This document shows positions 7,963 to 38,864 of a stretch of 64,000 nt of DNA, piece by piece. Location: the NCBI RefSeq assembly GCF_010731755.1, contig NZ_AP022589.1:2418001-2482000 (forward strand), written 5' to 3'. Each line of letters begins with the position of its first letter. The stretch's first letter is position 1. The translations under genes and the position numbers were made by a program. This DNA comes from Mycolicibacter minnesotensis (GTDB taxonomy: Bacteria; Actinomycetota; Actinomycetes; Mycobacteriales; Mycobacteriaceae). Below the pieces are notes generated by a model. It saw only the letters and a program-made list of their open reading frames with translations, searched no databases and was not told the origin of the DNA.

Positions 7963-8045
7963 GGCAGGTTGCCCGAGCGGCCAATGGGAGCGGACTGTAA
8001 ATCCGTCGGCGGAAGCCTACACAGGTTCGAATCCTGTACCTGCCA
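7963..8045 (+). tRNA. tRNA-Tyr (anticodon GTA)
   Basis: An 83-nt tRNA with a 7-bp acceptor stem (GGCAGGT at 7963-7969 with ACCTGCC at 8038-8044) and discriminator A at 8045. The anticodon loop CTGTAAA gives anticodon GTA, the variable arm is long as expected for Tyr, and the T arm is AGGTTCGAATCCT. The CCA end is not encoded (ACAC follows). A strong hairpin terminator starts 5 nt downstream. Confidence 0.95.
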
Positions 8046-28947: not shown

Positions 28948-29057
28948 GTAGTGACCTTCCGCCTCAAGGGTCAAACGAGGGTGCGGAGGGCACCCCTACC
29001 GACAACATACGTAGTCCACGGCCCGCACGTTCACCATTTGCGAGCGTGCCGCGCCGT

Positions 29058-29085
29058 TGAACCACAGTCCCGCCCGCACCGTGAT
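29058..29085 (+). promoter_or_regulatory. SigL-like promoter for the reductase gene
   Basis: TGAACC (29058-29063), 16 bp, CGTGAT (29080-29085). The -35 and spacer equal those of the three promoters at 34.7, 36.0 and 38.0 kb; the -10 keeps the CGT core but differs in its last two bases. It lies in the 266-bp gap between the divergent MMPL and reductase genes, giving a leader of about 120 nt. Confidence 0.5.
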
Positions 29086-29213
29086 CTCGACATGGGCAAC
29101 ACTGCGACCGGGGCCGTGGATGCTGCGCAATCCCCTTGCCGTTGCTTCGCCCTGGCCAACACAGCGGAAGTGCGGGAACGTATTCGGATGGACAACGTCG
29201 CGCTGGGGTGTCG

Positions 29214-30230
29214 GTGACCGGCTTCGACGCCGACCTGCTGGTGGTCGGCGGCGGACCCGGCGGCCTGGCCGCGGCGTTGTCTGCGCGCCAGCACGGGTTG
29301 TCGGTGATCGTCGTCGATCCGCGGGCCGGGCCGATCGACAAGGCCTGCGGGGAGGGGCTGATGCCGGGCGGGCTGGCCGTGCTGAAGGCGCTCGGGGTGG
29401 ACCCCGACGGTATGGCGCTGCACGGCATCACCTACCTCGACCACCAGCGCCGGGCCCAAGCGTCCTTCCGCGATGGTGCGGGGCGCGGGGTACGACGCAC
29501 CACATTGCATGCCGCGCTGGCCGATGAGGCCAAGCGCAACGACGTTGACTGGATCCATACGCGGGTGGGCGACGTGGTCCAAGACGCGGCCGGAGTCACG
29601 GCGGGCGGTGTTCGAGCCCGATGGCTCATCGGCGCCGACGGACTGCACTCCACGGTCCGCCGCGCCGTCGGGATCGCCAGCGTCGCAGGAAATCCACGGC
29701 GCTACGGGGTGCGGTCGCACTACCGGATTGCGCCGTGGTCGCCGTTCGTGGAGGTGTACTGGTCACGCTGGGGTGAGGCATATGTGACGCCGGTGGAACC
29801 CGGTCTGGTGGGGGTTGCCGTCTTGTCGCCGCAGCGTCCGCAGCTCGACTGGTTTCCTGCCCTGACCGCTCGGCTCGGCGACGCCGAAAACGGCCCGTCG
29901 CGCGGCTGCGGCCCGCTGCGGCAGGTGGTTTCGCGGCGCGTCGCCGGCCGGGTGCTGCTGGTCGGTGACGCCGCCGGATACGAGGACGCGCTGACCGGAG
30001 AGGGCATCAGTCTGGCCGTCAAGCAGGCCACAGCCGCCGTCGCGGCGATCGTCGACGACAACCCGCAGGCCTACGAGCGCCAATGGCGGACGATCACGCG
30101 CCGCTATCGGCTGCTCACCCGCGGTCTGGTGCTGGCCAGCGCGTGGCAGCCGACCCGACGTGCTGTGGTCCCGGCCTGTCGGGCGCTGCCGGCGGTGTTT
30201 GACCGCGCGGTGCATCTGCTGGCCCACTGA
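29214..30230 (+). CDS. FAD-dependent oxidoreductase, geranylgeranyl-reductase family
   Basis: 338-residue flavoprotein. The FAD motif VVGGGPGGLAAALSARQ is at the N-terminus, followed by KACGEGLMPGGLAVL (family Cys-Gly-Glu-Gly pattern), LIGADGLHSTVRRAV and VLLVGDAAGYEDALTGEGISLAVK. These enzymes reduce isoprenoid double bonds or hydroxylate small molecules, and often occur beside ketosynthase-type genes. The start is GTG at 29214 or GTG at 29208. Its last 116 bp overlap the 3' end of the convergent aminotransferase gene. A SigL-like promoter upstream links it to that operon. Confidence 0.75.
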   Translation: MTGFDADLLVVGGGPGGLAAALSARQHGLSVIVVDPRAGPIDKACGEGLMPGGLAVLKALGVDPDGMALHGITYLDHQRRAQASFRDGAGRGVRRTTLHAALADEAKRNDVDWIHTRVGDVVQDAAGVTAGGVRARWLIGADGLHSTVRRAVGIASVAGNPRRYGVRSHYRIAPWSPFVEVYWSRWGEAYVTPVEPGLVGVAVLSPQRPQLDWFPALTARLGDAENGPSRGCGPLRQVVSRRVAGRVLLVGDAAGYEDALTGEGISLAVKQATAAVAAIVDDNPQAYERQWRTITRRYRLLTRGLVLASAWQPTRRAVVPACRALPAVFDRAVHLLAH

Positions 30231-31266
30231 GGGCCCGCTCGACGACGGCCAGAACCCTCTGGGAGGAGCCGCGGGAGTCGACGGTGATGCGCACCGAACC
30301 GTCGGGATAGTTGCGGACCTGTAGCCCACTGGCGTCGAAGATCTCGCTCCATGATCGGCCCGCCGCCGGCAGGTAGACGAAGTTCGCGTGGGAATCGGTG
30401 GTGTAGGCACCGGCGGCGCGCAGCCGTGCACTCAGATAGCTGCGCTCGGCGACGATGTGCGCGATGCGCTGCTCCAGTTGGGCGTGGGCGGCGTAGGAGG
30501 CGGCCACCGCCACCGTGCAACCGGCATTGATGCCGAACGGCAGCTGCAAAGACCACAGCAGTTCGGCCAATTCCGGTGCCGCCAATGCGTATCCGATACG
30601 CAGACCCGCCAGGCCATAGGCCTTGGAGAACGTGCGCAGCACCACGACGTTCGAGAAGCGCTCGATGAGCCGGTGGACGTCGACGCGCCGGGCGGTGGCG
30701 ACGAACTCGATGTAGGCCTCGTCGAGCAGCACGATGGTGTCGGTGGGCACCTCGCTGATGAACCGCTCGACGTCGCCAACGGACTCCAGGGTGCCGGTCG
30801 GATTGTTGGGCCGGCACAGCACCACCACCCTCGCGTCCTGGGCGGCATGGGCCATCGCGGCCAGGTCATGATGGCCGTAACTGTCGAGGGGAACGTGGAC
30901 CGCAGCCAGCCCCGCCATCCGGGCGAACGCGAGATACCCCTCAAAGATGGGCATACTCAGCACGATCCGGTCGCCGGGTACCGCTGCGGCCTGCAGCAGT
31001 CGCAATGCCAGCCCGGAGGCCCCGGGACCGATGGCCACCTTCTCCTGCGGCACCCCGAGGTGTTCGGCGACCAGGCCGCGCAACCGCGTCGGCAGGAACT
31101 CCGGATAGCGGTTGGCCGCACCGATGAAGTCGGCCAGTGCCGCGCGCACCGCCGGCAGTGGTGGTAGCGCGCTCTCGTTGAGTGACAATGCGCAGGGGTC
31201 GACCGCAGGCGGGAGGATGGCGCGAAGCCGGCTGTTCGCCGAATCCTGCTGCGCCGCCGAGGTCAT
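30115..31266 (-). CDS. PLP-dependent class I/II aminotransferase (HisC-like)
   Basis: 383-residue fold-type I aminotransferase. LSLNESALPPLP at the N-terminus, RPNNPTGTLES, LLDEAYIEF, the PLP lysine in RTFSKAYGLAGLRIGY, and the substrate Arg region SVRITVDSRGSS all match histidinol-phosphate aminotransferase-like enzymes. The last 45 residues (after AVVERAL) are Pro/Arg-rich, unlike the family, and are encoded where the gene overlaps the convergent reductase gene. Its ATG overlaps the KAS III-like stop (ATGA). Last gene of the operon. It probably aminates a keto intermediate made by the upstream genes; substrate unknown. Confidence 0.8.
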   Translation of the reverse strand: MTSAAQQDSANSRLRAILPPAVDPCALSLNESALPPLPAVRAALADFIGAANRYPEFLPTRLRGLVAEHLGVPQEKVAIGPGASGLALRLLQAAAVPGDRIVLSMPIFEGYLAFARMAGLAAVHVPLDSYGHHDLAAMAHAAQDARVVVLCRPNNPTGTLESVGDVERFISEVPTDTIVLLDEAYIEFVATARRVDVHRLIERFSNVVVLRTFSKAYGLAGLRIGYALAAPELAELLWSLQLPFGINAGCTVAVAASYAAHAQLEQRIAHIVAERSYLSARLRAAGAYTTDSHANFVYLPAAGRSWSEIFDASGLQVRNYPDGSVRITVDSRGSSQRVLAVVERALSGPADAPRGQTPPAAPDRPGPQHVGSAATRWPAPDRG

Positions 31267-32294
31267 TGCGGACGTCCGCCCCACCGGAAGGCCGCCGCAC
31301 CGGCGAAGTCCCCGGCGTGCGCGAAGCCGGCCATCACCACAACCTCACCGGGCTGCACCCGGTTCTCGCTGATGGCCCGATCCAGATTGATCGGGATACC
31401 GGCGCCGAACAGGTTGCCGCACTCGTCAAAGGTGTCGACGTGTCGGGATTCGGGCAACTCCAGGGCCTCGCGCCAGTTGCGCAGGAAGACCCGGTTGGGC
31501 TGGTTGGTCACCAGCAGTCCGATATCGGCGGGTGACAGGTGATTACGGTGGCAGACCGCGAGCGCGACTTCGGGGACCTGCCGATTGCCGCGGGCGAGCA
31601 CCTTGGTGATCTTGTCCTCGGTGAAACCGATGTAGCCGGCGCCGGGGCCCGGCTCCCACCATTTGCGGGGCGGATCGATGGTGTAGGTCATGTCGCCGGC
31701 GTACTGGCCGTAGGTGCGGCATTCGACGTCGATGATCGGGGACTGATCAGACAGGGTCAGCAGCCCGACCGCGGCACCGTCACCGGGAACCGAAGCCTGC
31801 GACTTGCTGCGTACGGCGGGCTGATCGAAGACCTGGCCCGCCGCGTTCTGGGCGATCGCGATCAGCGCGCTGCGCCCGGCGCCGGCGGCCAACAGCTGCC
31901 GGGCAAGGTTGATCCCCAGCACGAACGCCGCGCAGCCCCCGTTGTGCAGATCCAGCACCGTGCTCGGTCGCATCCCCAGTCGGTGGGCGATACCGCCGCC
32001 CGAGCCGCAGAACGGGATGTCGGGCAACTGGGTGTGGGTGATCAGGATGTCGACGTCTTCCAGGGTGTCTTTACCGTGGCGCTCGAGGATTCCCTGTGCC
32101 GCCCTTTCAATCATGTCGACCGCGGACTCGTCGGTAGCCACATGATGACGGAATCGAGGCGCACGGAACATCAGATTGTCGCGCAACGCATCGGATTCGG
32201 CGTACTGCGTGTAGTAGTCGGCGGGGACGGGCTCGCCGGGAAGGTAGCTGGAGACGTCGATCAGGCTTACTGCGGGTCGACTCGGCTGGTTCAT
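31263..32294 (-). CDS. KAS III-like acyltransferase lacking the catalytic His
   Basis: 343-residue thiolase-fold protein of the FabH family. The nucleophile Cys121 is in LHNGGCAAF, and GNLFGAGIP carries the catalytic Asn (Asn294). In FabH the third residue is a His in a PHQAN-type motif 30 residues before that Asn. Here the motif reads TNQPN, with Asn264 at exactly this spacing (codon at 31503-31505). Decarboxylative condensation is therefore doubtful; acyl transfer to an O or N nucleophile, as in other divergent KAS III enzymes, is plausible. It sits 9 bp after the SRPBCC gene and overlaps the aminotransferase start by 4 nt. Confidence 0.75.
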   Translation of the reverse strand: MNQPSRPAVSLIDVSSYLPGEPVPADYYTQYAESDALRDNLMFRAPRFRHHVATDESAVDMIERAAQGILERHGKDTLEDVDILITHTQLPDIPFCGSGGGIAHRLGMRPSTVLDLHNGGCAAFVLGINLARQLLAAGAGRSALIAIAQNAAGQVFDQPAVRSKSQASVPGDGAAVGLLTLSDQSPIIDVECRTYGQYAGDMTYTIDPPRKWWEPGPGAGYIGFTEDKITKVLARGNRQVPEVALAVCHRNHLSPADIGLLVTNQPNRVFLRNWREALELPESRHVDTFDECGNLFGAGIPINLDRAISENRVQPGEVVVMAGFAHAGDFAGAAAFRWGGRPQ

Positions 32295-32303
32295 CGTCTC
32301 GCC

Positions 32304-32969
32304 TCACTGCATCCAGGCCGGCGTGACCGGCAGGCCGTTGTGGTGGCGGTATTCCGCGATCGCCTTGAGGTTCTTCAGTTCCAGTAGGTGCCCGGCCCCG
32401 AACATGTCCCAGAAGTCGCCCACCCAGACCGGGCGCTCCGGCGGTGCGGTGTCCGGATAGGGGTTCTCGTCATAGAACGGGTGGTGGCAATTGGTCCACA
32501 GCACAACCGATCCGGGCTTGTTGAACACCAGCTGCGCGTCGACCACCCGGATCAGGTAGATCATCCACAAGTGGTCGGGCTGGTCCCAGGCGCAGTGATA
32601 GTCGACGGTGCGGGCTTCCCGATTGAACTCGGTGCGGGTGTAGATCTTGGTCTCCGAGCCCAGCCGGTCATAGGCCAGCCAGAGGCCTGCCTCGTCGGTG
32701 GGGGTGAAGCCGCGCAGGCTGTAGGTCCATTCCTCCAGGCTGCGGGTGTCGGCGAGGTAGTCGAACAATTCGTCGGGCGGGCAGTCGATGTAGTCGTTGA
32801 CGGTGCAGTAGTTGCCGAAGACCACATCGTGGGGGTAGACCGAGCGCATCATCTCCATGATGATCGGCGTGGCGACCTCGCGCGGGCTGGTCTCGACTCG
32901 GATCAATCCATCGAGAGACCCGGGCGTACCGGTGTGGTCGTTGATATCAGCGAGGGCTGGCAGCGACAT
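32304..32969 (-). CDS. SRPBCC-fold protein (cyclase/START-like)
   Basis: 221 residues. After a 50-residue N-terminal stretch, VNDYIDCPPDELFDYLADTRSLEEWTYSLRGF is the typical first strand and helices of SRPBCC proteins, a fold used for binding hydrophobic ligands and in polyketide aromatases/cyclases. The remainder (ETKIYTRTEF, VDYHCAWDQPD, VVLWTNCHHPFYDENPYP) is rich in His, Trp and Tyr; the CHH pair may bind metal or ligand. Strong AAGGAGG 9 nt before the ATG. Its start lies inside the 3' end of the ThDP enzyme gene (23-bp overlap). Function unknown. Confidence 0.6.
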   Translation of the reverse strand: MSLPALADINDHTGTPGSLDGLIRVETSPREVATPIIMEMMRSVYPHDVVFGNYCTVNDYIDCPPDELFDYLADTRSLEEWTYSLRGFTPTDEAGLWLAYDRLGSETKIYTRTEFNREARTVDYHCAWDQPDHLWMIYLIRVVDAQLVFNKPGSVVLWTNCHHPFYDENPYPDTAPPERPVWVGDFWDMFGAGHLLELKNLKAIAEYRHHNGLPVTPAWMQ

Positions 32970-34692
32970 CGAGGTGATCCTCCTTGTGTATGGACTCTTG
33001 GTCGTGATGCCCTACGGGGGCAGTGGCTTTCGGTGAATCGGTGGCGGACAGGAACGGTGCGAACGGCGGTATCTCGTCAGCGGCACATTCGACGCTGATC
33101 ACCGAGGGCCCGTCGTGGTCCAACGCGGCTGCCAGGGCCGCGCGAAATGCGTCGGCGTCATCGACGTCGATCGCCTTCAGGCCTGGGAACATCGCGGCCA
33201 GCCCGGCACCGAGGTGGCTGGGGGAAAAGCGGTTGTAGCTGTAGAAGCCTTGGTAGAACAACTGCTCACGGGTGACGCACATGGCGTGCGCGTTGTTGTT
33301 CATCAGGACGAACAGAATGGGGAGCCGGTACTGCACGGCGGTGTGGATCTCCATGCCATGCATGAAGAACGAACCGTCGCCGGCGATCACCACGGTGCGC
33401 CGCCCGCGGCCCAGGGCCATGCCGATGCCGGCCCCGAAGCTGTATCCCATGCCGCCCATCCCCAGGGCCACCAGGAAGCGCCCTCCAGCGCGTGGCGGCA
33501 GGTAGTGAATGGCCGCCGCTCCGGTGTTGCCCGCGTCGACGACGACGTCGACCTCTGCGGGCAAGGCCCGGTCCAGCTCTGCCATCGCCTCGCGATAGCG
33601 CACCCCCGGGCCGGTGTGGGCGGGTGGTTGCAACTCGGTGTGCGGCACCGTTTCGGGCACCCGCAGCCACCTGGGGCGCCCCTCGCCGGAGAGATCCCGA
33701 ACGAGGGCCCGCAGCGACTGCCGCAGATCGTCAGTGTGCACATGCGTGCACGCAACGTAGGGGGGTGCCGAACCGATCGACACGGTGCGGACCGCACTCA
33801 GGGCCTCTTCGAGGCCGGCGCGTGCGGTCAACGACAACCGGGTACCCACCACCAGGCACACCGCGCTGGTGGCCAGTGCCTCAGCGGCCGAAGGATGGCC
33901 CATGATGCCGGCCACCCCGAGTGCCGACGACGATCCCAAACCCGATGTGCCGGAGACGTCCTTGGCGTCGGGCACGCACACCACCCGGGCGCGCAGCAGG
34001 GCACGCAGTTCCTCAAGTTCGGTGCGGGCGTCGTCGCGGGCCACCTGCTCACCGGCGATGATCGTGACCGGTCCGCGAGCATGGCGCAGCGTCTGCACAA
34101 TCGGGTGCGGGTCGCTGATCAGTGGGCGATCGGCCGCGCCGTTGCGCGAAATCGGCCCGCTGGCGACATGGCCTTGCTGAATGTCCTTGGGCAGCAACAG
34201 CACTGCGGGTCCACCGGCGCGGGCGGCGGCGATGGCCCGGGGCAGGGCCGCCACGATGCCCTCCGGGGAGAGCACCCGCTCGCAGAACACCGACACCGCT
34301 GAGAACAGGGCCGCAGCATCGATCGCGCCGTTGCGGCCGCTGGTGTCCTGAAAGCTGCCGCGGCCGTCCAAGATGCTCGGCGCCTGACCCACCAGCGCCA
34401 GCACCGGGACCCTGCTGGCCAACGACTCGCCCAGGCCGGCAACCAAGTTCAGTGCACCGCCCCCCGAAGTCGCGGCCACCACGCCCAGTCCCGCACCGCT
34501 GCGGCTGTAGCCGTCGGCCATCGTGGCGGCCGAGAACTCATGTTTGGCCAGGACTGCGGTGATCTCCGGGTGGAAATACGCTGCGTCGTAAAGATCTTCG
34601 ATATTCGCGCCGTCGACCCCGAAGAGGTGGCTGACTCCCCGTGCCGCCAGTTGGGCGACGATGAAATCGGCCACCGAAACGATCCTGGACAT
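32947..34692 (-). CDS. Thiamine-diphosphate-dependent enzyme (acetolactate synthase-like)
   Basis: 581-residue ThDP enzyme with three domains. The activating Glu52 is in LAKHEFSAATMADGYSR, the central domain spans about 190-320, and the cofactor motif GDGSFFMHG...NNNAHAM is in the C-terminal domain. GMGGMGYSFGAGIGMALG is also typical of decarboxylase/acyloin synthases. It would decarboxylate a 2-keto acid or join two keto compounds. The last ~30 residues are charged and atypical. The ATG at 34692 is preceded by a G-rich Shine-Dalgarno, and a SigL-like promoter sits 32 nt upstream. First gene of the four-gene operon. Confidence 0.8.
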   Translation of the reverse strand: MSRIVSVADFIVAQLAARGVSHLFGVDGANIEDLYDAAYFHPEITAVLAKHEFSAATMADGYSRSGAGLGVVAATSGGGALNLVAGLGESLASRVPVLALVGQAPSILDGRGSFQDTSGRNGAIDAAALFSAVSVFCERVLSPEGIVAALPRAIAAARAGGPAVLLLPKDIQQGHVASGPISRNGAADRPLISDPHPIVQTLRHARGPVTIIAGEQVARDDARTELEELRALLRARVVCVPDAKDVSGTSGLGSSSALGVAGIMGHPSAAEALATSAVCLVVGTRLSLTARAGLEEALSAVRTVSIGSAPPYVACTHVHTDDLRQSLRALVRDLSGEGRPRWLRVPETVPHTELQPPAHTGPGVRYREAMAELDRALPAEVDVVVDAGNTGAAAIHYLPPRAGGRFLVALGMGGMGYSFGAGIGMALGRGRRTVVIAGDGSFFMHGMEIHTAVQYRLPILFVLMNNNAHAMCVTREQLFYQGFYSYNRFSPSHLGAGLAAMFPGLKAIDVDDADAFRAALAAALDHDGPSVISVECAADEIPPFAPFLSATDSPKATAPVGHHDQESIHKEDHLDVAASPR

Positions 34693-34723
34693 CTGCCCCC
34701 ACCTAACTCCCGACGATGTCTGT

Positions 34724-34751
34724 GACACGGTGTGCGTCTGGCGTTGGTTCA
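34724..34751 (-). promoter_or_regulatory. SigL-like promoter for the biosynthetic operon
   Basis: Reading the minus strand: TGAACC (34751-34746), 16 bp, CGTGTC (34729-34724). This is a full match to the SigL promoter form I recall (TGAACC-N16-18-CGTgtc). It sits just after the anti-sigma stop codon and about 30 nt before the ThDP enzyme ATG. Confidence 0.7.
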
Positions 34752-34755
34752 GGCC

Positions 34756-35466
34756 CTACAGCGTGCGCTCCAGCAGGACTTGGCCGTTGACGGCGGAGAC
34801 CACCTGCACCGCGGCGATCTGATCGGCCGGTGTCGAGATGCTGGCGGCCGGTGTCGCGGTGTGTCCGGGTTCGGCGACCCAGGTCGCCAGCCGGGTCTGG
34901 CTGCCGTCGCGGCCCACGACCACCAGTGCCAGCGTGTCGTGGTGGGCGTTGACCGGTGCCAGGCAGACGCAACTCAAGTCGATGTGACTTCCCCAGGACT
35001 GGCTGCTGACCATGACCGTGGAGGCCAGTGCGGTGGTGCCGACCTGCGCCATCGGTACCGCCTCGTGATGAGGGGAGTGGGCAGGGGAGGAGCTGATGCC
35101 GATCAGCACGCCGATTCCGAGCACGGCGGCCGCCGCGGCCGACGCCGTCCACGCCATGATCCGGGTCCGCCGGCGCCGCCGGTGCACCTCGGCCAACAGT
35201 GCCGGCAGCAGGCTGGCCGGGGGCTGCGGTGGGTCGGATTCGTTGATCGCGGCCACACAGTCACTGTCGAGCTGCGACAGCAGCGCGGGAACGCCGCTGA
35301 TCTCGGTGACGGCGTCCCGGCATTGGGGGCAGCCGGCCAGGTGTCCCTCGAACTCCCGGCGATCGGCCGCAGACAGGGAGCCGAGCACGTAGGCGGCATC
35401 CCACATGGCGTAGGGATGCTGGTCTTCGACCGGCCACGCGGGGCCGGCGTCTCGCGGCGACATCAT
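34756..35466 (-). CDS. rslA: RslA-like zinc anti-sigma factor
   Basis: 236-residue membrane protein. The N-terminal cytoplasmic zinc anti-sigma domain has His42-x3-Cys46-x2-Cys49 (HLAGCPQC), preceded by WDAAYVLGSLSAADRREFEGH. One transmembrane helix at about 105-126 leads to an extracytoplasmic domain of about 110 residues. In M. tuberculosis RslA holds SigL through sigma region 4 and releases it on oxidation of the zinc site. The ATG overlaps the sigma gene stop by 4 nt. The anti-sigma domain is paralogous to the N-terminus of the dioxygenase fusion at 36071-37690 (shared WDAAYVLGSLSAA). Confidence 0.82.
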   Translation of the reverse strand: MMSPRDAGPAWPVEDQHPYAMWDAAYVLGSLSAADRREFEGHLAGCPQCRDAVTEISGVPALLSQLDSDCVAAINESDPPQPPASLLPALLAEVHRRRRRTRIMAWTASAAAAAVLGIGVLIGISSSPAHSPHHEAVPMAQVGTTALASTVMVSSQSWGSHIDLSCVCLAPVNAHHDTLALVVVGRDGSQTRLATWVAEPGHTATPAASISTPADQIAAVQVVSAVNGQVLLERTL

Positions 35467-35996
35467 CGGGTCACCCCCATCTCCTGCAGAGCCAGGCGCA
35501 GAGCCCGCACTGCGTAGTGCAGGCGTGATTTCACCGTTCCCTCTGCGATGCCAAGATCGTGTGCCGTCTGTCCCGTGGTCCAGCCACGGTAGTAGGACCG
35601 TTCGATCACCGCGCGATGCTCCGGTGACAGGTTGGCCATGGCGTCGGCGATCAACATCCGGTCCAGGGCGGTGTCCACCTCGTCGCGGGTGGGTTGGTCG
35701 GGTGCGGTGGTCTCGTCGAAGGAGGCGACGACGTTGCGGAATTTGGGGCTGCGCCGTTCGTCGATGATCATGTTGCGCGCCACGGTGCACAGCCAGGCCC
35801 GCGGGGAACGCTCGGTGTCATCGATCACCTCGGGGTGCTGCCAGGCGCGCAGCAGCGTCTCCTGAACCACGTCCTCGGCGCGGCTGGCGTCGCCGGTCAG
35901 GCGCATGGCGTAGCGCCACAGCACGGCGGCGTGTTCGTCATACAGCGCTTTCATCAGCGCGGCTTCGTGGTCAGGCGGGATGCCGATACGAGGCAA
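35463..35996 (-). CDS. sigL: ECF sigma factor, SigL-like
   Basis: 177-residue ECF sigma factor. Region 2 spans about residues 12-75 (ALYDEHAAVLWRYAMRL, EDVVQETLLRAWQH, RAWLCTVARNMIIDERR), and region 4 about 110-172 with the HTH TTGQTAHDLGIAEGTVKSRLHYAVRAL. I start at TTG 35996 because AGGAGG (36010-36005) lies 8 nt upstream; the GTG at 36005 overlaps that Shine-Dalgarno and could not use it. The resulting 177 residues equal M. tuberculosis SigL as I remember it. A promoter of SigL type lies directly upstream, implying autoregulation. The cognate anti-sigma gene follows with a 4-nt overlap. Confidence 0.82.
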   Translation of the reverse strand: MPRIGIPPDHEAALMKALYDEHAAVLWRYAMRLTGDASRAEDVVQETLLRAWQHPEVIDDTERSPRAWLCTVARNMIIDERRSPKFRNVVASFDETTAPDQPTRDEVDTALDRMLIADAMANLSPEHRAVIERSYYRGWTTGQTAHDLGIAEGTVKSRLHYAVRALRLALQEMGVTR

Positions 35997-36017
35997 GCTG
36001 ATCACCTCCTGCCTAGT

Positions 36018-36045
36018 GATACGACGTAGCGGCCCGGTGGGTTCA
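36018..36045 (-). promoter_or_regulatory. SigL-like autoregulatory promoter of the sigma gene
   Basis: Minus strand: TGAACC (36045-36040), 16 bp, CGTATC (36023-36018); one base differs from CGTGTC. The predicted transcript start is just before the Shine-Dalgarno, giving a very short leader, the same arrangement as at 37972-37999. Confidence 0.65.
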
Positions 36046-36070
36046 TGCTCGTTGCGGATACCCCGACGAG

Positions 36071-37690
36071 TCAGCCGGGAATCCAGCTCCCGTGAAAGCC
36101 GTGCGGCACGCGCCGGGGCAGCTGCACCCGGGCGACCGGTTCGGCGTCGAACTCCGATGCGCTGATGATCACCAGTTCGCTGCAGTGGCGCACCGGACTG
36201 TAGACGTAGGTCAGATACCAGCCGGCCGATTCGTCGGTCTGCCCCGGAGCCGGGGCGAACACCGCCTCGTCTGGTGCGCCGGCGGTGCCGTTGACACCGA
36301 ACCGGTACACCTGGGCACTGTCGCGTGCCAGGTCGTAGCGGACCAGGCCCTCTTTGCCGACGGTGACGGCGTAGCGGGCGTCGGTGCCCACCCGCCGGTC
36401 ATCCACCCGAGGAAACTCGATGTCCCGGTCGTCGAGCTGAACCTCACGCACCGCTCCGGCCGCCAGATCGATGGTCCAACGCCACAGCGAAGCATCGGTC
36501 TCGAAGTCGCTGTTGTCGCGCCAGATCTCTGGGTAGCGAACCACCTGAATCACAATCGACTCGCCCTGCGGCCCGGAAACGTCGAACGCGTTGGCGATGT
36601 GGAACACGTAGCACGGTTCGATGTCGAACCAGCGGATCGGCCCGAAGGGGTCATCGCGGCGCAGCACTCCCAGGCGGGCGGCGTAGCCGTCATCCCAGCG
36701 GTAGGGCAGGTCACGGTCGACCGGCCCGGTCAGCGCCACTTGCGGGTTGAACACCACGGGCAGGTCCAGGAACACCACGTGGTCTGCGGTCAGCGCGAAG
36801 TCGTGCATCAATGTCATCGCGGGAACGTCGATCGGTCGCCGGATCGCCACGGTGCCGTCGGCACCGGCACGGTAGTAGGTGATGTGTGGGTGGGCGAAGT
36901 CGCCGTAGCCGAAGAAGTGCAGCTCGCCGGTCTTGGGACACACCTTGGGGTGCGGGGCCATCGAATCGACCAGCTTGCCTGCGAAGTCGTAGGCGCCCAG
37001 GGTGTCGAGCTCACGGCTGATCTCGTAGGGCAGGGAGGCATCCATCAGTGCCAGGGTCTTGCCGGCGTGCTGGATCACGTGGGTGTTGGCGGCGCTGGCG
37101 TGCAGGTTGCGGCTGCCGTCGGGGCGCAGTCGCGGCAGCGGCTGATCGAAGCTTTCGGTACGCACCCAGCGGTTGCGGTACCAGGCGGCCCGGCCGTGGT
37201 GCAGCCGGACACCGTGCACCATGCCGTCGCCGGTGCACCAATGCCCGCCCGCCGATCGAGGGTTGGGGCCGTTGCGCAGGTACCAGCCGTCGAGCTCCGG
37301 CGGAATGCTGCCCTGCACCGGTAGATCGAACGCGGTGAGCTCGTCGGCGACGGGGGAGTAGTTGCTGGGACGAAAGACCGAGAAGACGGTCTCTGGGGCC
37401 TGCAGGACCGCCACCGGCGTGCCCGACGCCGGCAGATCCGCGGTGCCGTTGACCTGCCGGGTGGCGCCGTGGTGTTCGGGGGCGACTGCCGCGTGGGGTT
37501 GGTCGACGGTGAAGTCGCTGCGATCCAGCAGGGACAGCGCCACCAGTGTTTCGGACAACTCGGCGACGGCGTCCTGGCACAGCCCGCAGTGGTCCAGGTG
37601 GGTCTGGAACTCGAGGTGCTCGGCTGCCGACAGGGATCCCAGCACGTAGGCGGCATCCCAGGCGGCGTACTCGCGGTGCGAGGTCGTCAT
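36071..37690 (-). CDS. Fusion of zinc anti-sigma domain and carotenoid cleavage dioxygenase
   Basis: 539 residues. Residues 1-55 are a zinc anti-sigma domain (WDAAYVLGSLSAAEHLEFQTH, His31-x3-Cys35-x2-Cys38), closely similar to the adjacent RslA. A linker (56-100) leads to a complete carotenoid oxygenase of about 435 residues. All four iron-binding His are visible: His247 (APHPK), His296 (LMHDFAL), His364 (YVFHIANAF) and His533 (GFHG). Such enzymes split a polyene or stilbene double bond with O2. There is no transmembrane helix, so unlike RslA it is cytosolic. The ATG overlaps the stop of the region-4-only sigma gene by 4 nt. I know of no characterised protein with this fusion. Confidence 0.85.
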   Translation of the reverse strand: MTTSHREYAAWDAAYVLGSLSAAEHLEFQTHLDHCGLCQDAVAELSETLVALSLLDRSDFTVDQPHAAVAPEHHGATRQVNGTADLPASGTPVAVLQAPETVFSVFRPSNYSPVADELTAFDLPVQGSIPPELDGWYLRNGPNPRSAGGHWCTGDGMVHGVRLHHGRAAWYRNRWVRTESFDQPLPRLRPDGSRNLHASAANTHVIQHAGKTLALMDASLPYEISRELDTLGAYDFAGKLVDSMAPHPKVCPKTGELHFFGYGDFAHPHITYYRAGADGTVAIRRPIDVPAMTLMHDFALTADHVVFLDLPVVFNPQVALTGPVDRDLPYRWDDGYAARLGVLRRDDPFGPIRWFDIEPCYVFHIANAFDVSGPQGESIVIQVVRYPEIWRDNSDFETDASLWRWTIDLAAGAVREVQLDDRDIEFPRVDDRRVGTDARYAVTVGKEGLVRYDLARDSAQVYRFGVNGTAGAPDEAVFAPAPGQTDESAGWYLTYVYSPVRHCSELVIISASEFDAEPVARVQLPRRVPHGFHGSWIPG

Positions 37691-37953
37691 GGCAGTGTTC
37701 TCGCCGCGCGCAGGCTCTGCTGCAGGGCCCGCAGCGCGTAGTGCAGTTGTGTTTTCACGCTGACTTCCGCCATTTCCCGATCGGCTGCGATCTGCTGGGT
37801 GCTCCAGCCGTCGTAATAGGCACGGCGTAGCAGGGCGCGTTGTTCAACCGAGAGCTGAGTCAGTGCAGCGGCCACGTCAGCCCGGCTGGGTGCGCGGTCG
37901 CGGCGTGCGGGCGCCATCGCCTGGCGACTTGCCGGGGGTGTTCCTTTATCCAT
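37687..37953 (-). CDS. Stand-alone sigma region 4 protein
   Basis: 88 residues: about 25 disordered residues, then an ECF region 4 (ALTQLSVEQRALLRRAYYDG, HTH STQQIAADREMAEVSVKTQLHYALRAL), closely parallel to region 4 of the SigL-like protein at 35463. There is no region 2. The start is certain: GGGGAGG lies 7 nt before the ATG and a SigL-like promoter ends about 18 nt before it, so this is not the 3' remnant of a longer sigma gene. It could occupy anti-sigma domains and so release SigL, or act as a DNA-binding cofactor. Coupled to the fusion gene by a 4-nt overlap. Confidence 0.75.
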   Translation of the reverse strand: MDKGTPPASRQAMAPARRDRAPSRADVAAALTQLSVEQRALLRRAYYDGWSTQQIAADREMAEVSVKTQLHYALRALQQSLRAARTLP

Positions 37954-37971
37954 GCACCGGCCTCCCCGAGT

Positions 37972-37999
37972 GACACGCTGCGGCGGCCTGGCCGGTTCA
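37972..37999 (-). promoter_or_regulatory. SigL-like promoter of the sigma-4/dioxygenase operon
   Basis: Minus strand: TGAACC (37999-37994), 16 bp, CGTGTC (37977-37972), a full match. The start codon at 37953 follows after a leader of about 12 nt that carries part of the GGGGAGG Shine-Dalgarno. Confidence 0.7.
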
Positions 38000-38090: not shown

Positions 38091-38864
38091 TTACGAGGTG
38101 CTGGTGACCAGTTCCAGATCCCAGGCCTGCAGCCACGGCTTGATCAGCTGCGCGACCGAGGACTCCTGCGTGCCCTTGCACACCGCGTCGGGATCTTGGC
38201 CGTCGGACACCACGCTCAGGATGCCGACCGCTTCGGCGGTGCCGTCGGGCCGGACCCGGTATGCCGGGCCGCCGGCATCGCCGCAGGTACCGGCCGCGGT
38301 GAAGCGCACCGAGTCCCGCTCGCCGGCGACCACTGTGCCGCACATCGGCTCACCGCTGCGCACCCCCAGGTGGCAGAGCTCGTCGCCGATCTCCACGCTG
38401 TCGGCCACCCCGGTCACCGGGCGACCGTCGACCTCGGAGGACAGCGGGAACTTGTCGTGGCGGTCCAGAACGATAAGCCCGATATTGGAGTCGCCCCAGC
38501 GGTCGCCGTCATAGACGCTCTGGGTGAACCCGCCGACGGTGGGGTAGAGGGCGCCGTGGTGGATGGCCACCTCACCGGACCCGCCCGGCTTGTTGCAATG
38601 CCCCGCGGACAGCAGGCCCGGCTGCCCGGTGTTGGTGCGGACCAAGAACCCCGCGGTGCAGCTGGTGGACTCCGAACGTCCGGTGCCGGACACGTTGATA
38701 CCGACGCCGGGACCGATCGCCTCGGCAGCCGGCAGTGGGATCAACTGCCGCACCGGTTGGGCACGGGTGGCCCAGACGATGCCGGCCAGGACTGTGAGCG
38801 CGCCGGCCACGATGGCCAGGCGCTTAAGCAGGGTTCTGGGCGGGAGTCGTCGAATGGCGTCCAC
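38091..38864 (-). CDS. Trypsin-like pseudoprotease, membrane-anchored
   Basis: 257 residues with the layout of the protease at 24383-25177: N-terminal transmembrane anchor (about 15-32), then a chymotrypsin fold. His89 is kept (SAGHC), but the Asp position is Asn127 (SNIGLI) and the nucleophile position is Ala197 (GTCGDAGGP; codon GCC at 38274-38276, one base from TCC for Ser). With two of three triad residues gone it cannot be a serine protease. The cysteines and overall fold are conserved, so it is probably a binding or regulatory protein, not a decaying gene. No neighbour is obviously linked to it. Confidence 0.82.
   Translation of the reverse strand: MDAIRRLPPRTLLKRLAIVAGALTVLAGIVWATRAQPVRQLIPLPAAEAIGPGVGINVSGTGRSESTSCTAGFLVRTNTGQPGLLSAGHCNKPGGSGEVAIHHGALYPTVGGFTQSVYDGDRWGDSNIGLIVLDRHDKFPLSSEVDGRPVTGVADSVEIGDELCHLGVRSGEPMCGTVVAGERDSVRFTAAGTCGDAGGPAYRVRPDGTAEAVGILSVVSDGQDPDAVCKGTQESSVAQLIKPWLQAWDLELVTSTS

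What the first reader, a model, noticed from the sequence alone, without database searches (positions are those of the whole stretch)
29058..37999. Four TGAACC-N16-CGT promoters define a SigL-like regulon confined to one 9-kb block
On the minus strand at 37972-37999 and 34724-34751 the sequence is TGAACC-16 bp-CGTGTC; at 36018-36045 it is TGAACC-16 bp-CGTATC. On the plus strand at 29058-29085 it is TGAACC-16 bp-CGTGAT. All have the same -35, exactly the same spacer, and lie directly before the sigma-4/dioxygenase operon, the sigma gene itself, the ThDP operon and the convergent reductase gene. This is the SigL promoter form I recall from M. tuberculosis. Other TGAACC hits I noticed in the window (about ten, mostly inside genes) lack the -10 at that spacing. 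So one sigma factor appears to control its own gene, an antagonist operon and a biosynthetic pathway.
Basis: partly seen in the sequence, partly recalled or inferred. Interest (0 to 1): 0.82.

Follow-up and report, generated by a model that had tools for sequence, protein, structure and literature searches.

The report
SigL regulon with sigma-mimic and anti-sigma enzyme
Four matching promoters in this mycobacterial chromosome mark genes probably switched on by one stress-type sigma factor, SigL, and one of those operons encodes two unusual parts: half a sigma factor that has lost a conserved residue of its DNA-reading helix, and an anti-sigma domain fused to a carotenoid-cutting enzyme.

Summary
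The four TGAACC-N16-CGT sites are real, at the stated coordinates, and far beyond chance. The sigma gene is a sigL orthologue followed by rslA. In 15 named related loci the motif is kept, with diverged spacers, before the same operons (61 near-perfect matches versus 1 for the reversed motif), and before sigL in other mycobacteria. A SigL regulon is thus well supported, without expression data.

'Confined to one block' is wrong. The same genome has two more such sites about 1.4 Mb away, before a type III polyketide synthase-methyltransferase operon and a flavin monooxygenase operon. The reductase promoter is inherited from a longer polyketide synthase-methyltransferase-reductase operon, mostly deleted here, leaving a 41-codon scar.

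The unusual part is the fourth operon. Its large gene is an RslA-like anti-sigma domain fused to a carotenoid cleavage dioxygenase; its small gene is SigL region 4 alone. Six relatives keep a full-length second sigma there. Region 2 was lost in two separate clades, and all 14 truncated copies examined lost a recognition-helix arginine that the full-length copies keep. Best reading: a decoy for anti-sigma domains. Binding is untested. Most literature searches failed, so novelty in print is unchecked.

The parts
37972..37999 (-). SigL-type promoter (TGAACC-N16-CGTGTC) of the sigma4-only / ZAS-dioxygenase operon
   Evidence: >=11/12 in 12 of 13 relatives whose locus reaches it, the other (L020) exact with a 17-bp spacer
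37687..37953 (-). sigma4-only protein, 88 aa: SigL region 4 without region 2; stop overlaps the next start (ATGA)
   Evidence: Pfam Sigma70_r4_2 39.4 bits; PDB 3hug_A/6dv9 SigL; 49% identical to SigL over 63 aa
36071..37690 (-). RslA-like zinc anti-sigma domain (about residues 5-56) + linker + carotenoid cleavage dioxygenase (about 108-538)
   Evidence: RPE65 355 bits; zf-HC2 20.4 bits, under its cut-off of 22.2; 3hug_B RslA E 2.9e-11; 61% to own RslA over 49 aa; four Fe-ligand His and HxxxCxxC kept in 16 of 16
36018..36045 (-). SigL-type promoter of sigL-rslA (autoregulation)
   Evidence: >=11/12 in 15 of 15 named relatives, 10-17 nt before the start
35463..36005 (-). sigL, ECF sigma factor, 180 aa
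   Evidence: NCBIfam PRK09645 280 bits, cut-off 202; PDB 6dv9 SigL E 1.5e-84
34756..35466 (-). rslA, anti-sigma factor with HxxxCxxC and a likely membrane helix (by eye)
   Evidence: zf-HC2 33.4 bits; 3hug_B E 1.7e-32
34724..34751 (-). SigL-type promoter of the ThDP operon
   Evidence: >=11/12 in 12 of 14 relatives, 10/12 in the other two
32947..34692 (-). ThDP enzyme (acetolactate synthase-like)
   Evidence: three TPP_enzyme domains
32304..32969 (-). 221-aa protein without a family match, same operon
   Evidence: found in the block of relatives
31263..32294 (-). ketoacyl synthase III-like enzyme
30115..31284 (-). PLP aminotransferase (HisC-like); 3' end overlaps the convergent reductase
29058..29085 (+). 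SigL-type promoter (TGAACC-N16-CGTGAT) inherited from a PKS-ICMT-reductase operon
   Evidence: the corresponding site is CGTGAC in 11 relatives and CGTGGT in L009
29092..29217 (+). 41-codon scar ORF: start region of the type III PKS operon joined to the end of the ICMT gene
29214..30230 (+). FAD-dependent geranylgeranyl-reductase-like oxidoreductase
   Evidence: 97 bits, below the model's cut-off of 158.8

Best explanation
The four sites are promoters of the ECF sigma factor SigL. SigL, held by the zinc anti-sigma RslA, is released by a signal (thiol oxidation in the M. tuberculosis homologue) and transcribes sigL-rslA itself, a ThDP/KAS III/aminotransferase pathway, the remainder of a type III polyketide operon, a second cluster 1.4 Mb away, and an operon that looks like a duplicate of the sigL-rslA module. 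In that copy the anti-sigma domain is fused to a carotenoid cleavage dioxygenase and the sigma is cut down to region 4. The sigma4-only protein most likely acts by sigma mimicry: it occupies the anti-sigma domain of RslA and/or of the dioxygenase fusion and so tunes how much SigL is free, while the dioxygenase is a redox- or substrate-linked anti-sigma enzyme. Supported by sequence: promoter motifs and their conservation, orthology, likeness of the two modules, truncation, loss of the arginine. Inferred: SigL acting at the sites, the decoy action, the dioxygenase as sensor. My confidence is about 0.93 for the SigL promoters, 0.85 for the two-cluster regulon, 0.5 for the decoy role, 0.35 for the dioxygenase as sensor; the number below is for the whole with the decoy as favoured sub-model.
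For: SigL orthology. Footprint: 61 matches >=11/12 against 1 for the reversed motif in 15 named loci, spacers diverged. sigL promoter motif >=10/12 in 15 of 17 further genus genomes; random stretches reach 10 in 3.7%, true sites not removed. 30 exact matches against 2 in the whole genomes of 8 of the 15 named relatives. Second cluster, with matching sites in 3 of those 8. Second module and truncation; the truncated copies are not one clade, AU p 0.0038. Arginine lost in 14 of 14 truncated copies, kept in 6 of 6 full-length second copies and 20 of 20 SigL. Published: RslA co-purifies with SigL region 4 alone and is inferred to cover its DNA and RNAP faces (PMC2877774, abstract and sections 5 and 11 read).
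Against: No transcript or binding data. Genome-wide enrichment of the motif in the window's own genome is weak. In PMC2877774 region 4 alone did not bind RslA by SPR, only on co-expression. The sigma4 region is under weaker constraint than SigL region 4 (pN/pS 0.37 versus 0.16 over 66 pairs; 0.42, where L021, with a one-residue deletion, was misaligned). In 7 of 12 Mycolicibacter-type loci examined the first start after the promoter opens a separate 28-38-codon leader ORF, and sigma4 must start further on (in L016 and L023 a GTG just before would give one 132-aa ORF). The reading frame breaks at a contig end in M. nonchromogenicus. In the window and M. arupensis the first zinc-ligand His of the fusion is shifted by one residue. 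The M. arupensis assembly has a stop codon within sigL.
Confidence: 0.6

Rival explanations
1. Plain SigL regulon with a relic: the sites are SigL promoters, but the sigma4-only ORF is a decaying remnant kept only because its end is translationally coupled to the dioxygenase, which is a metabolic enzyme whose anti-sigma domain no longer matters.
For: Weaker constraint, leader ORFs, shifted zinc His in the window, break in one assembly.
Against: Region 4 is an open frame in all truncated loci read except M. nonchromogenicus, where it breaks at a contig end; pN/pS is below 1; HxxxCxxC is invariant in 16 of 16 and 23 of 23; region 2 was lost separately in a second clade by an in-frame excision that keeps promoter, start and region 4, and the same arginine changed in both clades. 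The 14 copies are related, so they are not 14 independent events.
Confidence: 0.28
2. Split sigma: sigma4-only works with a separate region-2 protein as a two-part sigma factor (as recalled for B. subtilis SigO/RsoA).
For: A free region 4 exists in the operon.
Against: The recognition-helix arginine is lost; none of the ten block proteins examined is an orphan region 2. The rest of the genome was not searched for one.
Confidence: 0.05
3. The sites are read by another ECF sigma factor (or, in genomes that have it, the second full-length SigL paralogue), not by SigL.
For: Assignment to SigL rests on position and a recalled consensus.
Against: The motif precedes sigL itself in 15 of 17 other genus genomes, none of which is among the 20 found to carry the fusion.
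Confidence: 0.05
4. Chance matches in a G+C-rich genome.
For: The short pattern is common in this genome (48 hits, 25 for the reversed pattern).
Against: Shuffles, footprint 61 versus 1, near-constant distance to the sigL start.
Confidence: 0.01

Closest known systems
SigL-RslA of Mycobacterium tuberculosis (PDB 6dv9, 3hug)
   Same: Sigma and anti-sigma match by sequence; the two genes adjoin; likely targets include a type III PKS and an ICMT-oxidoreductase set, as SigL targets pks7-pks10 and Rv1138c-Rv1139c are cited (passages of PMC13002591; what those genes encode is recalled).
   Different: An added second module (sigma4-only + anti-sigma-dioxygenase fusion), a ThDP/KAS III/aminotransferase operon as target, and in relatives a type III PKS-ICMT-reductase operon beside sigL.
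PhyR-NepR-EcfG general stress response (recalled)
   Same: A sigma-like protein that does not transcribe titrates the anti-sigma factor.
   Different: PhyR has a receiver domain; here only region 4, in one operon with an anti-sigma enzyme, with no phosphorylation domain.
SigO/RsoA two-part sigma of Bacillus subtilis (recalled)
   Same: Region 4 on its own polypeptide.
   Different: No region-2 partner seen in the block; recognition-helix arginine lost.
Mycobacterial carotenoid cleavage dioxygenase (NCBIfam NF052295)
   Same: The fusion's enzyme part aligns with it over most of its length, and the Fe-ligand His are kept.
   Different: Scores 371 bits against a cut-off of 675, and carries an N-terminal anti-sigma domain; other genus matches begin mostly at about residue 95-108 of the query, a few at 61-92.

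Membership tests
SigL (ECF sigma factor, mycobacterial) | Region 2 and region 4, above the curated cut-off of the model that fits SigL best | tested here: met
   PRK09645 280 bits versus cut-off 202 (that this model stands for SigL is inferred from its match); 6dv9 SigL E 1.5e-84 over residues 12-180
SigL (ECF sigma factor, mycobacterial) | Cognate RslA encoded directly downstream | tested here: met
   3hug_B E 1.7e-32; genes overlap
SigL promoters | TGAACC-N16-CGT motif conserved before sigL and its operons in relatives | tested here: met
SigL promoters | Transcription start at the site, dependent on SigL | not testable with these tools
   needs 5'-end mapping or in vitro transcription
Zinc anti-sigma (ZAS) protein, for the dioxygenase fusion | HxxxCxxC motif | tested here: met
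   16 of 16 fusions; 23 of 23 rows
Zinc anti-sigma (ZAS) protein, for the dioxygenase fusion | N-terminal His ligand (His25 of RslA in PMC2877774) | tested here: inconclusive
   By eye: at the RslA spacing before the conserved Trp in 14 of 16 rows, shifted by one residue in the window and L009
Zinc anti-sigma (ZAS) protein, for the dioxygenase fusion | Pfam zf-HC2 above its cut-off | tested here: not met
   20.4 bits against 22.2; the likeness to RslA itself is clear
Zinc anti-sigma (ZAS) protein, for the dioxygenase fusion | Binds and inhibits a sigma factor | not testable with these tools
   no binding data
Carotenoid cleavage dioxygenase | Four Fe-ligand histidines in a beta-propeller | tested here: met
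   His247, 296, 364, 533 lie in the conserved motifs shared with solved enzymes (that these are the Fe ligands is recalled) and are kept in 16 of 16; model of modest quality (pLDDT 63) matches CCD1 E 1.2e-29
Working ECF sigma factor, for the sigma4-only protein | Region 2 (binding of RNAP and -10) | tested here: not met
   absent; tblastn with SigL finds only region 4 there in the window, in L009 a weak extension to SigL residue 71
Sigma mimic / anti-anti-sigma | Binds the anti-sigma and raises sigma activity | not testable with these tools
   inferred only

The most novel reading that the evidence does not exclude
A self-contained sigma-mimicry circuit: SigL switches on an operon that makes a region-4 decoy, which frees SigL from RslA, together with a second anti-sigma factor whose sensor is a carotenoid-cleaving dioxygenase, so that carotenoid/apocarotenoid or oxygen status feeds back on SigL. 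The decoy arose at least twice by removing region 2 from a full sigma factor, in both clades with loss of the same recognition-helix arginine.
Probability: 0.33. Interest if true: 0.82.

Novelty: new variant of a known kind. Interest (0 to 1): 0.62.

Why it matters
It gives SigL a conserved, testable regulon in species outside the tuberculosis group, with a type III PKS-ICMT-flavin reductase core that recalls the targets cited for M. tuberculosis. It also shows an anti-sigma domain fused to a carotenoid dioxygenase and a repeated reduction of a sigma factor to its anti-sigma-binding half, a direct way to test sigma mimicry in ECF systems and to ask which signal a dioxygenase would report.

Tried and rejected
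Chance origin of the sites: rejected by shuffles and footprint. Confinement to one block: rejected. Exact genome-wide hit at C1:946952 as a promoter: set aside, it lies inside a likely gene read on the other strand, and a like site in G102 is probably the same coding stretch (inferred). The other pattern hits outside the block were judged only by ORF overlap and base composition (which listed 43 sites), so weaker targets may be missed. A single loss of region 2: rejected (AU p 0.0038). Known RNA elements: only a tRNA at 7963-8045. Rows dropped: the pN/pS counts left out L019/L020 (full-length), L022 (broken at a contig end) and, L021 (one-residue deletion); the sigma4 promoter count left out L010 and L022, whose contigs end before it; the ThDP count left out L017, which lacks the operon. 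One search was given 8 of the 15 named loci.

Paper searches and paper look-ups 55, 80 timed out. I therefore make no claim that anything here is absent from print. Papers seen: search listing; PMC13002591 passages; PMC2877774 outline with abstract and sections 5 and 11.
Full report
Observation. The four sites are present at the stated coordinates and are the only TGAACC-N16-CGT matches in the window. Dinucleotide shuffles give 0.60 on average and none of 100 reached four. Over the whole 4.22-Mb genome the short pattern occurs 48 times against 25 for the reversed control, and TGAACC-N16-CGTGTC with up to one mismatch 30 times against 20, so the bare motif carries little information; placement and conservation carry it.

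The sigma factor. The 180-aa protein at 35463-36005 (-) passes the curated cut-off of PRK09645 (280 against 202 bits) and its best solved relative is M. tuberculosis SigL (6dv9, E 1.5e-84). The next gene is RslA-like (3hug_B, E 1.7e-32). Among the loci fetched with the dioxygenase protein the nearest is Mycolicibacter arupensis (90% identity).

Footprint. Fifteen named loci were fetched with the dioxygenase protein and mapped: 13 of Mycolicibacter type and two from Mycobacterium sp. Bu41 and SM1. Scanning 608,040 positions for >=11 of 12 matches to TGAACC-N16-CGTGTC gave 61 hits and 1 for the reversed motif; three of the 61 (L009 3050, L017 2586, L021 12239) are not at a recurrent position. 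The sigL promoter reaches >=11/12 in 15 of 15, 10-17 nt before the start; the ThDP promoter in 12 of 14 (10/12 in L019 and L020); the sigma4 promoter in 12 of 13 (L020 is exact with a 17-bp spacer). Spacers differ between species. In 17 other genus genomes (the sigL loci among the 20 fetched) the best upstream match was >=10/12 in 15, and 8 and 9 in the other two; random stretches of these loci, true sites not removed, reach 10 in 3.7% and 8 in 45%.

Extent of the regulon. In the whole genomes of 8 of the 15 named relatives exact TGAACC-N16-CGTGTC occurs 30 times against 2 for the reversed pattern; by position I count 20 of the 30 in or next to the sigL block. In the window's genome it occurs four times: two in the block, one at C1:946952 inside a likely gene on the other strand, and one at C1:1032469-1032496, just before a flavin monooxygenase gene. 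In 3 of the 8 relatives (M. icosiumassiliensis, Mycolicibacter sp. MYC017, M. heraklionensis) the same gene, followed by DUF4389, methyltransferase and small-protein genes, has the same motif with another spacer, and faces an ABC-FtsX operon with a second site; the other five showed no such pair of exact sites and were not examined further. In the window's genome the facing operon starts with a site TGAACC-N16-CGTGAC at C1:1024534-1024561, an ATG 6 nt downstream, then a type III PKS gene, an ICMT gene, the ABC ATPase and FtsX, with a MarR gene divergent. So the regulon has at least two clusters about 1.42 Mb apart. Five loci also have a site before the neighbouring MMPL gene (L015, L016, L017, L018 with CGTACC, L023); the window has no TGAACC-N16-CGT there.

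The reductase promoter. In eight relatives this promoter lies 1,577-1,589 nt before the reductase, and in L016 the genes between are a type III PKS (chalcone/stilbene synthase domains) and an ICMT-family methyltransferase. In L012 and L014 the distance is 695 and 770 nt, in L009, L011 and the window 129, 75 and 156 nt; L021 has no match to the reductase in its locus. Window 29001-29137 aligns to the start of this operon in L010 and 29143-29260 to its end, leaving a 41-codon ORF (29092-29217) that ends like ICMT and overlaps the reductase start. The promoter was therefore inherited from the longer operon. SigL targets cited for M. tuberculosis include pks7-pks10 and Rv1138c-Rv1139c (passages of PMC13002591); that pks10 is a type III PKS and Rv1139c-Rv1138c an ICMT and an oxidoreductase is recalled.

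The second module. The dioxygenase gene begins with a domain 61% identical to RslA over 49 residues (RslA structure 3hug_B E 2.9e-11; Pfam zf-HC2 just below cut-off), continues with a low-confidence linker and ends in a carotenoid dioxygenase with all four Fe-ligand histidines in 16 of 16 sequences (alignment to solved enzymes). A model of modest confidence shows three helices, a disordered stretch and strands that match solved dioxygenases. The gene before it encodes region 4 of SigL only, and its stop overlaps the fusion's start. That the module is a duplicate of sigL-rslA is inferred from these likenesses.

Distribution and history. In 297 genus genomes at least 20 carry the fusion: 19 rows matched from residue 6 or before, and G340 by the wider match (the match listing is cut after its best rows). 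In a sample of 200 genomes of the order it was seen in 4, all of the genus; no listed match outside the genus began before residue 58. Of the 20 loci, 6 have a full-length second SigL paralogue before the fusion, and 14 have region 4 alone: 12 of the Mycolicibacter type and 2 others (L099, L101). In L099 and L101 the protein keeps the first residues of the full-length form (MDIPE-) and jumps to region 4, with a SigL-type site (CGTATT) directly before it. On a tree of 23 fusions and 5 standalone dioxygenases the two truncated groups lie apart, each beside full-length forms (2 changes; forcing one clade is rejected, AU p 0.0038). In the recognition helix the motif KSRLHY is kept in 20 of 20 SigL and 6 of 6 full-length second copies; the arginine is Gln in 11, His in 1 and Trp in 2 of the 14 truncated copies. 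That this arginine contacts DNA is inferred from its place in the recognition helix; I could not read the promoter-complex paper.

Mechanism. RslA binds region 4 of SigL, is inferred by its authors to cover the promoter- and RNAP-binding faces, and co-purifies with region 4 alone on co-expression, though region 4 alone did not bind by SPR; oxidation weakens the hold 8-fold (PMC2877774). A natural region-4 protein with a changed recognition helix is what one would expect of a decoy for such an anti-sigma factor, and its coupling to a gene that carries an anti-sigma domain suggests paired dosage. Whether it frees SigL, or only occupies the fusion, is open. The relic reading is the main rival: constraint on region 4 is weaker than on SigL (pN/pS 0.37 against 0.16 over 66 pairs each; the first count, 0.42 over 78 pairs, was raised by a misaligned row), and 7 of 12 Mycolicibacter-type loci examined have a short leader ORF before the region-4 ORF.

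Verdict. A well-supported sigma regulon, wider than claimed, containing one unusual operon that deserves a bench test.

Noticed in passing
window 30115-30230: The aminotransferase ORF and the convergent reductase overlap by about 116 bp at their 3' ends; a like overlap is seen in relatives such as L009.
   Followed up: no
L009 11689-12231: The M. arupensis DSM 44942 assembly has an in-frame stop codon in region 2 of sigL; it may be a real loss or a sequence error. Not mended.
   Followed up: no
L019 16689-16711 and L020 16781-16804: Two SigL-type sites on opposite strands with starts about 22 bp apart, before genes I did not identify.
   Followed up: no
L114 12580 and L116 12988, minus strand: TGAACC-N16-CGTGAC sites about 2 kb beyond the ABC operon, the form seen before the polyketide synthase in the window's genome; the genes after them were not identified.
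   Followed up: no
genome C1:9188-9212 and C1:4218545-4218569: The same TGAACC-N16-CGT stretch with an identical spacer occurs near both ends of the contig, suggesting a repeated gene or overlapping ends of a circular sequence.
   Followed up: no
window 38091-38864: A distant relative of the Rv1815 family serine proteinase (below its cut-off) lies upstream of the sigma4 operon; L018 has two side by side.
   Followed up: no
L117 3936-4445: A MarR gene is divergent from the polyketide synthase promoter of the second cluster; in M. tuberculosis a MarR gene (Rv0737) lies next to sigL-rslA and binds its promoter (PMC13002591 passages).
   Followed up: partly
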